DNA of 44,587 nucleotides, taken from contig JAIOIK010000043.1 of the NCBI GenBank assembly GCA_019912545.1, positions 1 through 44,587 of the forward strand, read 5' to 3'. Of this stretch, positions 4,102 to 44,405 are shown one piece after another. The DNA comes from Ignavibacteria bacterium (GTDB taxonomy: Bacteria; Bacteroidota; Ignavibacteria; Tepidaquicellales; OLB5). Made by a program: the position numbers and the translations under genes. Every line of letters begins with the position of its first letter. Position 1 is the stretch's first letter. The notes beneath the pieces are model-generated. The model worked only from the letters and a program-made list of their open reading frames with translations. It was not told where the DNA came from and ran no database searches.

Positions 4102-4440
4102 ATCAACATTTTTTATGCTCGCAAATATGCATAGCAAACCCCGGCCGGCTTTTTACGGCAAAAAAATAGAATCAGGGGGTTCTTCAGGGTTTTCATAAGC
4201 TATATTTAATTAATTCTTCTTGTAAGGTTTCTAGTCTGTGTGGTTGCCTTACAGGAGTTTTGGTAATTTAAAGATTATTGGGTAAATCTCCTTTTCAAAA
4301 AAATCAACAATACAAAAGTAATTCTCTAAACAAATATAACTATAAAAGTAAATTTCTATCACTCAAATATTCAGAACTAAAATATTTTGTTAAAAAATAT
4401 GAAAAAAAAACGAAACATTGCACTTTTTTGAAAACAAAAA
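4102..4440. other. AT-rich stretch without a gene
   Basis: No open reading frame with coding character is visible on either strand. A weak dyad GTAAGG..CCTTAC lies near 4221-4251. The rest is A/T-rich and may hold the promoter for the minus-strand gene starting at 4037. Confidence 0.5.
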
Positions 4441-4481
4441 GACTACAAAAGTCTTAAAGACTTTTGTAGTCTGATTTTTTT
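4441..4481. terminator. Bidirectional intrinsic terminator
   Basis: GACTACAAAAGTC (4441-4453), loop TTAAA, then GACTTTTGTAGTC (4459-4471) is a perfect 13-bp stem. A run of seven T follows at 4475-4481, and an A-rich run precedes it, so it can serve both strands. Its core is shared with the hairpin at 58-90. Confidence 0.6.
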
Positions 4482-4487
4482 GATTCT

Positions 4488-4515
4488 GGAACAAGGGGGC
4501 AAGCCCCCTTGTTCC
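4488..4515. repeat. REP-like palindrome, family B (variant)
   Basis: GGAACAAGGGGGC, AA, GCCCCCTTGTTCC: a perfect 13-2-13 palindrome. It matches the three copies at 41995-42020, 42374-42399 and 42623-42648 around the transposase at 42059-42598, differing at the centre (AA instead of AT). It lies just past a terminator in an intergenic gap, 37 kb from its presumed transposase. Confidence 0.8.
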
Positions 4516-41994: not shown

Positions 41995-42020
41995 GAACAA
42001 GGGGGCATGCCCCCTTGTTC
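41995..42020. repeat. REP-like palindrome family B, copy 1
   Basis: A perfect 26-bp palindrome with half GAACAAGGGGGCA centred on GCATGC. It is located 38 bases before the transposase ATG at 42059 and identical to the copies at 42374-42399 and 42623-42648. Confidence 0.9.
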
Positions 42021-42058
42021 CTGAGGATTCTGATTTCTAAGCTGATCAGCGGAATTGC

Positions 42059-42598
42059 ATGGAAGAGCAAAAACATATTTTTCACGTTACCTGGGTTACG
42101 CATAACAGCAGGACCAGTGAACGAATGAAGAAACTGAACATAGAACCCGGTTTGCCGGTTTTGTTATCAGGAAAAGATGAACTGGAGATTACCGGTTATA
42201 TTAATGAAACTGTTGATGCTGATGAATTAAAATTACTGGCTTTTAATATTTGCAGAGATCACGTGCACTTGCTTTTGGTTTGTATTGAAGAAGAACGTGA
42301 TAAAATAGTAAATAAATTGAAAGCAACATGTTCCAGGAAATTTAACATTGCGCATGGCTTGACGAAAATTGAAGAACAAGGGGGCATGCCCCCTTGTTCC
42401 AGGAAAAGGAGAGGCAAATCACAGAATACATTATGGGCTCAAAAGTATAATTGGTCGTATGTATTGGATGAAAGAGATTTACAGTCTAAATATACGTATG
42501 TAAAACATAACAGGATAAAACATAATTTGCCGAAGAGCTTAGAACTTGAAGAAATAATTGAAAGCATGCTTACATCTTATAATGGTTCAATGGAATAA
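42059..42598 (+). CDS. Y1/HUH transposase of REP-associated type, with a palindrome in its frame
   Basis: 179 residues. HUH motif DHVHLLLV (His68, His70). The nucleophile is probably Tyr147 in YTYVKHNRIKH, a YxxxNRxKH pattern of the single-domain Y1 transposase class. It differs clearly in sequence from the family A transposase at 30414 and has its own palindrome family. Codons 106-114 (EQGGMPPCS) are the 26-bp family B palindrome itself (42374-42399), inserted in frame before the basic segment RKRRGKSQNTLWAQKYN without breaking the gene. Copies of the same palindrome also lie 38 bases before the ATG and 25 bases after the stop. ATG start. Confidence 0.88.
   Translation: MEEQKHIFHVTWVTHNSRTSERMKKLNIEPGLPVLLSGKDELEITGYINETVDADELKLLAFNICRDHVHLLLVCIEEERDKIVNKLKATCSRKFNIAHGLTKIEEQGGMPPCSRKRRGKSQNTLWAQKYNWSYVLDERDLQSKYTYVKHNRIKHNLPKSLELEEIIESMLTSYNGSME
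42374..42399. repeat. REP-like palindrome family B, copy 2, inside the transposase gene
   Basis: The same 26-bp palindrome as copies 1 and 3, read in frame as EQGGMPPC plus part of a serine codon. The mRNA would carry a strong 13-bp hairpin in mid-gene. Confidence 0.92.
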
Positions 42599-42622
42599 TT
42601 GTCTCATTTTAAGTACCCAAAA

Positions 42623-42648
42623 GAACAAGGGGGCATGCCCCCTTGTTC
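42623..42648. repeat. REP-like palindrome family B, copy 3
   Basis: Identical 26-bp palindrome 25 bases after the transposase stop; the flank CCAGAGGACT resembles CCTGAGGATT after copy 1. It also lies just upstream of the GH5-like gene. Confidence 0.9.
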
Positions 42649-42686: not shown

Positions 42687-43769
42687 GTGTCTGATTTTGT
42701 AAAAAACTTTGACGGGCAGTTCTCATTAAGCGGAAAGCGATTCCGCTTCATTGGTGCTAATGTGTATGAGCTGGCAAATGTACCGGCAGATATCACAAAA
42801 AGCATCATTGATGCCGCCGCCGGACAGGGATTTAACGCGCTTAGATTCTGGCTATTTGAAAATAGATCCCAAAAGGAGCAAATTAAGAAACTAAACGAGA
42901 TCTGTGATCTGGTAAATCCGTATGGATTGAAACTAATTGTTTCACTGGCTGATAAGTGGGGTTACCTGCAGAATTACAGAATTGATAATAAGTGGTACGT
43001 AGGCGCATATAAAAAGGGTTACATTGATTATATTAAAGGAATTACCGGCGCATGCAAAAACCGGGATGAAATTATGATCTGGGAGCTTATCAATGAGCCG
43101 GTCACAGATTCATTCAAGTTGTTTTATGATTTTGCAAAGCACTCAGGGGAAGTAATCAAAGCTGTCAATGAAAATCACTTGGTATCAATTGGAACAGTAG
43201 GCGGCGTTGGTGATAAATTTGGAGGTTTTTTTTCGGTGTTTAGAAGAAGTAATTTTGAGAAACTATACAGCCTGCCCTCGCTGGATGCAATATCGCTTCA
43301 TGATTACAGTTATGATTCGGGCATATTCGAAAGGCTTGATATATATTCCCGGTTGATGGAGAGGAGAAATCTTTCTCAACTGCTCGGGAAAACAGACAAT
43401 CTTCTGAATGCACTGTCTAACAAAATAGATAATTATTACCTGAAGAAGGGTAAACTTGTTCATATTCCGCTGACATTAAGACATTTGTGGAACGGGTATA
43501 ACAGGAAAAACCTTGAGTTTGCCCTGAAAATAAGTAAGCCTGTTTATATCGGAGAAGTTGGGTTTAAATCTGCACTTAAGCGTGAGCGCACAAAGATATT
43601 TGAGCTTGATGCAGGGAAGAAATTCACACAGGGAGTTGGAGGCTATGTGCTGTGGTTGTTTGAGGCATGCGGGTGGAATAGAGACGGGCATGGGTATGGA
43701 TTTAATGAGAAAGACGGATTTGGAGAAGTTGTCAAAAGATTGAAAGACGATTTTGAGATTGAGTTGTAA
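42687..43769 (+). CDS. Glycoside hydrolase, GH5/endo-mannanase-like
   Basis: 360 residues, TIM barrel. GKRFRFIGANVYEL near the N-terminus and FNALRFWLFE match the GH5 mannanase type. The acid/base glutamate is in IMIWELINEPV (about residue 137) and the nucleophile glutamate in PVYIGEVGFK (about 290). Residues around HDYSYDSG fit the substrate cleft. There is no signal peptide from GTG 42687, so it is either cytoplasmic or its true N-terminus was lost next to the repeat at 42623-42648. It could hydrolyse beta-mannan or a related oligosaccharide. Confidence 0.78.
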   Translation: MSDFVKNFDGQFSLSGKRFRFIGANVYELANVPADITKSIIDAAAGQGFNALRFWLFENRSQKEQIKKLNEICDLVNPYGLKLIVSLADKWGYLQNYRIDNKWYVGAYKKGYIDYIKGITGACKNRDEIMIWELINEPVTDSFKLFYDFAKHSGEVIKAVNENHLVSIGTVGGVGDKFGGFFSVFRRSNFEKLYSLPSLDAISLHDYSYDSGIFERLDIYSRLMERRNLSQLLGKTDNLLNALSNKIDNYYLKKGKLVHIPLTLRHLWNGYNRKNLEFALKISKPVYIGEVGFKSALKRERTKIFELDAGKKFTQGVGGYVLWLFEACGWNRDGHGYGFNEKDGFGEVVKRLKDDFEIEL

Positions 43770-43775
43770 GTTTTT

Positions 43776-43869
43776 GTGAGCTTCGCTCACATGTCAGAAC
43801 TTTGGACCTGACTTTAGGGCATGAACAGTTTTCTTTTTTGCAGAAGTCAAACGCTTGCGTTTGACCTAC
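43776..43869. repeat. Mixed REP remnants between GH5-like and GNAT genes
   Basis: GTGAGCTTCGCTCAC (43776-43790) is a short hairpin. GTCAGAACTTTGGACCTGAC (43793-43812) is a worn family A hairpin. GTCAAACGCTTGCG..TTTGACCTAC (43846-43869) is a family C palindrome ending in CTAC (GTAG reversed). Confidence 0.65.
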
Positions 43870-43907
43870 AGACACAGAAATTGAAATAATTAAATCACAC
43901 TACAAAT

Positions 43908-44405
43908 ATGATACTGGAAACCGAAAGACTTTACCTGCGTCCTCTCAACAAAGATGATCTTGATACACTTGCTAAAATGTACAGTGATATTGAAGTAATG
44001 CGTTTTATCGGTGATGGGAGAACATTTAACCGGGCGCAAGCAGAAAAATCGATTTACCGGTGGAATGAATACGAGGAACAGAAAGGATACTGCAACTGGG
44101 CAGTTGTAAGGAAGGATGACAAAGCATACATTGGTAACTGCGGATTCAACCGGCTGCCTGATGACAGCGATACTGAAATATCGTACTTGTTGGATGAACC
44201 ATACTGGGGCAAAGGGTATGCTTCGGAAATTTCAAAAGCAGCGCTTGATTATGGTTTTGAAAAACTGAATTTCAATAGAGTTGTTGCACTTGTTTACCCG
44301 CAAAACCGACCTTCGATCAGAGTAATTGAAAAGATGGGAATGAAGTATGAAAAGGAAGCTGAATATTGGGGAGTGAAGTTGTTGATGTTTGCGAAGGAAA
44401 AGTAG
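43908..44405 (+). CDS. GNAT N-acetyltransferase (RimJ/RimL-like)
   Basis: 165 residues. ETERLYLRPLNKDDLD at the N-terminus, EISYLLDEPYWGKGYASEIS (about 91-110) with the acetyl-CoA pyrophosphate loop WGKGYA, and RVVALVYPQNRPSIRVIEKMGM (about 123-144), all standard for the RimJ/RimL family that acetylates ribosomal protein N-termini or small molecules such as spermidine and antibiotics. ATG start; no operon partner in the window. Confidence 0.9.
   Translation: MILETERLYLRPLNKDDLDTLAKMYSDIEVMRFIGDGRTFNRAQAEKSIYRWNEYEEQKGYCNWAVVRKDDKAYIGNCGFNRLPDDSDTEISYLLDEPYWGKGYASEISKAALDYGFEKLNFNRVVALVYPQNRPSIRVIEKMGMKYEKEAEYWGVKLLMFAKEK

What the first reader, a model, noticed from the sequence alone, without database searches (positions are those of the whole stretch)
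41995..42648. Transposase gene that carries its own recognition palindrome in frame and on both sides
Three identical 26-bp palindromes lie before, inside and after the Y1 transposase gene. The internal copy encodes EQGGMPPCS in frame (codons 106-114) without destroying the gene, just before a basic segment. If the palindrome is the enzyme's substrate, the gene can be targeted within its own coding sequence, and the protein has tolerated the insertion as a surface loop. This may give self-limitation (cleavage of its own gene, or a hairpin in its mRNA) or act as a minimal mobile unit of 650 bp.
Basis: seen in the sequence. Interest (0 to 1): 0.78.

Follow-up and report, generated by a model that had tools for sequence, protein, structure and literature searches.

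The report
Transposase gene carrying its own repeats
This small bacterial transposase gene is flanked by, and carries in frame, the short palindrome it probably moves; its closest relatives mostly sit, palindromes included, in frame inside restriction-enzyme genes, so this mobile DNA seems able to live within working protein-coding genes.

Summary
A fourth copy (1 mismatch) is at 4489-4514; the genome has 12 (up to 3 mismatches), all intergenic except the one in this gene. The internal palindrome lies in an extra, predicted-disordered loop between helix C and strand 4: homologues without a palindrome there have 35-38 residues between HUH and LWxQK, the window has 53. A sister species has one palindrome, and no gene, at exactly this site, so palindrome-gene-palindrome is a ~630-bp unit that came or went at palindrome boundaries. 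Of 80 relatives fetched, 72 sit in large ORFs, and the six checked are type IIG restriction-modification enzymes; 62 of 80 carry palindromes in the transposase stretch (81 seen, 0.45 expected), translated in all three frames. HUH, the tyrosine and the methylase motifs are invariant in 33 full-length embedded proteins. In-frame REPs inside tnpA genes are known (TnpA_REP subclass 2.4), but this clade differs in motifs, loop and palindrome type, and I found no report of its restriction-enzyme-embedded form. Self-limitation has no support; cleavage of the palindrome is inferred.

The parts
41995..42020 (.). upstream copy of the 26-bp perfect palindrome, 38 bp before the start codon
   Evidence: G006 has one palindrome at this point
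42059..42598 (+). Y1/HUH transposase gene, 179 aa; H68 (42260-42262) and H70 (42266-42268) of the HUH motif, candidate catalytic tyrosine Y147 (42497-42499)
   Evidence: H68, H70 and Y147 invariant in 48 homologues; fold nearest TnpA ISDra2, RAYT 4er8, IS608
42374..42399 (.). internal in-frame copy of the palindrome, codons 106-114 EQGGMPPCS, in the loop between helix C (77-98) and strand 126-134
42623..42648 (.). downstream copy of the palindrome, 24 bp after the stop codon
   Evidence: right flank aligns with the G006 right flank
41995..42648 (.). whole unit palindrome-gene-palindrome (654 bp; gene plus one palindrome is 628 bp) absent as a block from the sister genome G006, which keeps one palindrome
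4489..4514 (.). dispersed intergenic copy of the palindrome with 1 mismatch (GCAAGC centre)

Best explanation
The window holds a solitary, single-copy, REPtron-like element: a Y1/HUH transposase gene with copies of the REP-type palindrome that it most likely recognises. By analogy with TnpA_REP and IS200/IS605 TnpA, the enzyme would bind the palindrome folded as a hairpin in single-stranded DNA, cut beside it with Y147 (5'-phosphotyrosine, HUH histidines holding the metal) and rejoin ends, spreading palindromes and sometimes the gene with a palindrome (inferred). The gene-plus-palindrome unit was gained next to, or lost from between, palindromes at this locus since the split from a sister species (shown: one palindrome there, two plus the gene here; direction not shown). 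The internal copy is an insertion into the enzyme's own gene, retained because it keeps the frame and falls in a surface loop between helix C and strand 4 (extra length, loop and frame shown; insertion event inferred). The same clade has gone further elsewhere: whole transposase domains with palindromes sit in frame inside type IIG restriction-modification enzymes with both active sites kept.
For: Exact copies, none in shuffles. All other genomic copies intergenic; the one intragenic copy is in this gene. Empty site with one palindrome in G006. Loop 35-38 residues without and 43-108 with a loop palindrome; 53 here. AF2 mean pLDDT 90.8 with the 99-125 loop low; DNA-bound TnpA structures are the best fold matches. 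62 of 80 relatives have palindromes in the Y1 stretch: 81 seen, 0.45 in synonymous-codon shuffles. The palindrome core follows the Y1 tree: 27 changes against 48.9 shuffled, minimum 43. Flank-inside-flank anatomy recurs in G301/L078 inside an RM gene. The two other Y1 genes of the genome examined lack this palindrome; one has its own. Empty-site type IIG enzymes and invariant catalytic residues of both enzymes.
Against: No binding, cleavage or movement assay. G006 may reflect deletion by recombination between the flanking 26-bp repeats and not transposition. G006 and G012 hold this palindrome superfamily without a detectable clade member, so palindromes outlive or do without this enzyme, or another enzyme moves them. 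No GTAG/GTRG guide at any of the 12 copies, so cleavage-site choice must differ from known TnpA_REP. A palindrome inside a gene is inherited with the gene, so the core-to-tree match is only partly independent. The related G010 copy carries a TAG stop.
Confidence: 0.74

Rival explanations
1. The internal palindrome is a selected control element: a hairpin in the mRNA or gene that pauses translation or lets the enzyme cut its own gene and so limits itself.
For: Strong predicted RNA hairpin, -27.3 kcal/mol against -14.6 +/- 2.9 in shuffles; the upstream palindrome lies before the start codon.
Against: Position varies among relatives (loop, C-terminal linker, N-terminal loop in G010, elsewhere in the host RM gene); all three frames are used; many relatives have none in the loop. 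A dedicated regulator should be better conserved in place.
Confidence: 0.1
2. The palindromes are general genomic repeats (terminator-like or moved by another enzyme) that happen to lie around and in this gene.
For: Related palindromes occur in same-genus genomes without a clade member; other Y1 genes exist in the genome.
Against: Three exact copies in 654 bp against 12 copies in 3.66 Mb; the only intragenic copy is in this gene; the same association in 62 of 80 relatives across phyla; the other two Y1 genes lack it.
Confidence: 0.1
3. The solitary gene is an escapee from a restriction-enzyme-embedded ancestor and is now a decaying relic, not an active element.
For: Most of the clade is embedded; the window groups with embedded L078 and L087 plus solitary L108; the solitary G010 copy has a stop codon.
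Against: Solitary forms also form deep groups with flanking palindromes (L086, L126, L146, L150), so direction is unresolved; the window gene is intact with an invariant active site. Long branches make placement unsure.
Confidence: 0.15
4. Assembly error at palindromes produced the arrangement.
For: Draft assembly in 206 contigs; short palindromes can mislead assemblers.
Against: Both outer flanks are syntenic with G006; the two halves of the transposase on either side of the internal copy are colinear with homologues; the same arrangement exists in independent assemblies.
Confidence: 0.03

Closest known systems
TnpA_REP subclass 2.4 / RAYT group 4 with REPs inside the tnpA gene (Quentin et al. 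2018, PMC6006769)
   Same: Y1/HUH gene flanked by palindromes, with palindromes inserted in frame in the tnpA gene without breaking it, in a peripheral variable region.
   Different: Motif NHxH and YIxNNP there, DHVH and YVKHNRIKH here; variable region between beta3 and alphaC there, between alphaC and beta4 here; REPs there include types with GT[AG]G feet, here none; restriction-enzyme embedding not described (that study discarded unexpectedly long proteins).
Rickettsia palindromic elements and intragenic GTAG/CGTC REPs (described or cited in PMC3733652)
   Same: Palindromic repeats tolerated in frame inside protein genes, often more than one per gene.
   Different: There the host genes are ordinary cellular genes; here the transposase's own gene, or a restriction enzyme that also contains the transposase.
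IS200/IS605 transposases (IS608, ISDra2)
   Same: HUH/Y1 fold, best structural matches include 2xm3 and 2vjv; hairpin-bounded unit.
   Different: Single copy; below the IS200 model cut-off (27.8 against 55 bits); perfect symmetric palindromes, one inside the gene.
Type IIG restriction-modification enzymes (PADLOC PDLC03609, Pfam Eco57I/TaqI_C)
   Same: Host of most relatives; empty-site homologues are 57-65% identical over the first 563 residues.
   Different: Relatives carry a Y1 insert of roughly 160-260 aa between EFPxIF and GGFDVVIGNPPY, with palindromes.

Membership tests
HUH/Y1 transposase superfamily | HUH motif, downstream catalytic tyrosine, Y1 fold | tested here: met
   Pfam PF01797 29.6 bits against cut-off 23; H68, H70, Y147 invariant; fold match to 2xm3, 4er8, 2vjv
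REP-associated tyrosine transposase (NCBIfam NF047646) | score above the curated cut-off | tested here: not met
   best model but 47.6 bits against a cut-off of 80
REP-associated tyrosine transposase / REPtron | gene flanked by palindromes that are dispersed in the genome | tested here: met
REP-associated tyrosine transposase / REPtron | GTAG/GTRG tetranucleotide at the palindrome foot | tested here: not met
   absent on both sides of all 12 copies
TnpA_REP subclass 2.4 | in-frame REP insertion inside tnpA | tested here: met
   criterion from PMC6006769
TnpA_REP subclass 2.4 | NH[IFV]H and YIxNNP motifs; insert between beta3 and alphaC | tested here: not met
   DHVH, YVKHNRIKH; insert between alphaC and beta4
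IS200/IS605 | NF033573 above cut-off; multicopy IS | tested here: not met
   27.8 against 55 bits; one close copy in the genome
any TnpA that processes the palindrome | single-strand cleavage and joining at the palindrome | not testable with these tools
   needs purified protein

The most novel reading that the evidence does not exclude
A clade of Y1 transposases lives as in-frame, self-carried inserts inside working genes, somewhat as inteins do but without splicing: the transposase domain and its own translated palindromes are retained within type IIG restriction-modification enzymes, exactly at the junction where the specificity half of these enzymes is exchanged, with both active sites conserved. 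The window's solitary unit would be the free form. Its single-strand nicking could promote exchange of specificity modules.
Probability: 0.25. Interest if true: 0.85.

Novelty: new variant of a known kind. Interest (0 to 1): 0.62.

Why it matters
In-frame REPs in tnpA genes were known as a peculiarity of one subclass. Here a separate clade combines three things: palindromes in its own gene, an empty/filled pair of sister loci showing that the gene-palindrome unit comes or goes as a block, and dozens of relatives kept in frame inside defence enzymes with both active sites conserved. That gives a concrete system in which to ask how REP elements move (still unsettled), how mobile DNA persists inside coding sequence, and why a single-strand nickase is kept inside a restriction enzyme.

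Tried and rejected
Single-sequence search of genome contigs found nothing; the alignment search found 97. Viral contigs: none. Plasmids, with the single window protein only: none. Direct PDB sequence search weak, E about 0.5. Idea that the palindrome superfamily is restricted to genomes with this enzyme: rejected, G012, G002, G005 and G006 have 10-22 copies without a detectable clade member. Idea that the Y1 insert causes the exchange of restriction-enzyme specificity halves: not supported, because enzymes without the insert break at the same place. AF2 model of the 1190-aa embedded enzyme had pTM 0.40 and was not interpreted. Gain versus loss of palindromes at the other genomic sites compared with G006: some shared (L004, L011, L012 sites), the L003 site has no palindrome in G006, other alignments too poor to read. 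Literature searches combining Y1_Tnp with Eco57I, HUH endonuclease with type IIG, and related terms returned no report of the embedded form; only open-licence PMC papers were searchable.

Full report
OBSERVATION. The three palindromes are exact and where stated. The gene is ORF 42059-42598, 179 aa, Y1_Tnp. Codon 106 starts at 42374; the copy reads EQGGMPPCS. All three reading frames of the 26-mer are stop-free (NKGACPLV, TRGHAPLF, EQGGMPPCS; read directly from the sequence), which makes it easy to carry in coding DNA. A fourth copy with one mismatch lies at 4489-4514.

GENOME. Twelve copies with up to 3 mismatches in 3.66 Mb, reversed control 0; all others lie between genes. The looser form ACAAGGGGN6CCCCTTGT has 18 matches here and 0-22 in 12 other genomes of the genus, and is absent from nearly all other genomes of the class that were sampled. 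The window gene is the only close copy. Two other Y1 genes of the genome were examined: one (C39) has no palindromes, the other (C40) is flanked by its own, ACTACAAAAGTCTTAAAGACTTTTGTAGT. This is an internal control for the pairing of enzyme and palindrome.

EMPTY SITE. In G006, the nearest relative by the neighbouring GH5 protein (77%), the left flank is 86% identical up to and through one palindrome (GAACAAGAGGCATGCCCCCTTGTTC) and the right flank continues after it; the transposase gene and second palindrome are missing. In 10 of the other 11 genus members the sequence read upstream of GH5 (500 bp; 301 bp in one) shows no such palindrome; one could not be read because the anchoring motif was not found. 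So palindrome-gene-palindrome behaves as a block of gene plus one palindrome (628 bp). Gain next to a palindrome and loss by recombination between two palindromes both fit. In G010 a 54%-identical gene lies on the other side of the conserved GH5-acetyltransferase pair and has a different palindrome (TTACAA centre) upstream and inside, at another place in the protein; that copy carries a TAG stop.

THE LOOP. Between HUH and xLWxQK, members without a loop palindrome mostly have 35-38 residues, those with one 43-108, the window 53. AF2 (48-sequence alignment, mean pLDDT 90.8, pTM 0.85) gives helix 77-98 and strand 126-134 with the stretch between at low confidence and no secondary structure; the palindrome peptide is 106-114. 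Best fold matches are ISDra2 TnpA, RAYT 4er8 and IS608 TnpA.

RELATIVES. An alignment search gave 97 relatives, 80 kept, across Bacteroidota, Ignavibacteriota, Chlorobiota, Balneolota, Spirochaetota and others. 72 of 80 lie in large ORFs; those scanned against family libraries are type IIG restriction-modification enzymes. The usual site is between EFPxIF and GGFDVVIGNPPY; enzymes without the insert read EFPDVF-AN-GGFDVVIGNPPY there. L078/G301, L088 and L153 lie in differing enzyme contexts. L078 has two in-frame palindromes on each side and one inside, the same plan as the window. 62 of 80 Y1 stretches contain at least one palindrome (81 in all, 0.45 expected). Translated frames include TRGHAPLS, NKGxxPLV and, as in the window, QGGMPPC; hence repeated acquisition, not one inherited insert. 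The core follows the Y1 tree (27 changes against 48.9 shuffled), with the caveat that a palindrome inside a gene is inherited with it. In 33 embedded proteins HUH, the tyrosine, DPACGSGAF and GNPPY are all invariant, and dN/dS in the insert is mostly 0.06-0.21, one pair 0.42, so the insert is under purifying selection.

MECHANISM. Shown: copies, positions, frame, loop, empty site, association across relatives. Inferred from TnpA_REP and IS200/IS605 biochemistry (PMC8266576): hairpin binding in single-stranded DNA, cutting beside it through the tyrosine, rejoining. Known TnpA_REPs use a GTAG guide; none of the 12 copies here has GTAG/GTGG nearby, so cut-site choice is unknown.

KNOWN. Quentin et al. 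2018 describe in-frame REPs in tnpA genes of subclass 2.4, so that phenomenon is not new. This clade fails that subclass's tested motif, insert-position and foot criteria and scores below NCBI's RAYT cut-off (47.6 against 80). The restriction-enzyme-embedded form was not found in the papers searched, which is limited evidence of absence.

VERDICT. A real, well-supported new variant of a REPtron-like element; the self-limitation idea is unsupported; the wider finding is the clade's life inside type IIG enzymes.

Noticed in passing
L078-L157; L030, L118, L147: 72 of 80 relatives of the window transposase are in frame inside large ORFs (type IIG restriction-modification enzymes in those checked), with translated palindromes and both active sites conserved.
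   Followed up: yes
L118, L145/L152, L080/L082, L173-L182: In this type IIG family identity is high up to GGFDVVIGNPPY and then drops to about 30% in most pairs, with or without the Y1 insert: a module-exchange junction, exactly where the transposase is inserted.
   Followed up: partly
window 4440-4472; L250 (G000:C40): A second palindrome family, AGACTACAAAAGTCTTAAAGACTTTTGTAGTCT, lies close to the 4489 copy; a RAYT-like Y1 gene on contig C40 is flanked by that palindrome.
   Followed up: partly
L249 (G000:C39), about 1905-2432: A third Y1 gene (DHTH, YVLNQEDHH, resembling the published subclass 1.2 motif) without flanking palindromes.
   Followed up: no
L242 (G012:C1:19500-25500): Seven ACAAGGGGTTGCAACCCCTTGT copies within about 2 kb, in no recognised gene.
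   Followed up: no
L029 (G010) and window 42687-44405: The related transposase of G010 lies on the other side of the conserved GH5-acetyltransferase pair and has a TAG at the LW tryptophan position.
   Followed up: partly
L036 (G319), L153: Some embedded relatives carry an unrelated palindrome type (CAGACGGCTTCAGCCGTCTG and similar) in frame at several places in the restriction-enzyme gene.
   Followed up: no
L162 (G302:C16): Two GGGGGCATGCCCCC palindromes 302 bp apart with no ORF of 90 aa or more between them; possible remnant of a similar unit.
   Followed up: no
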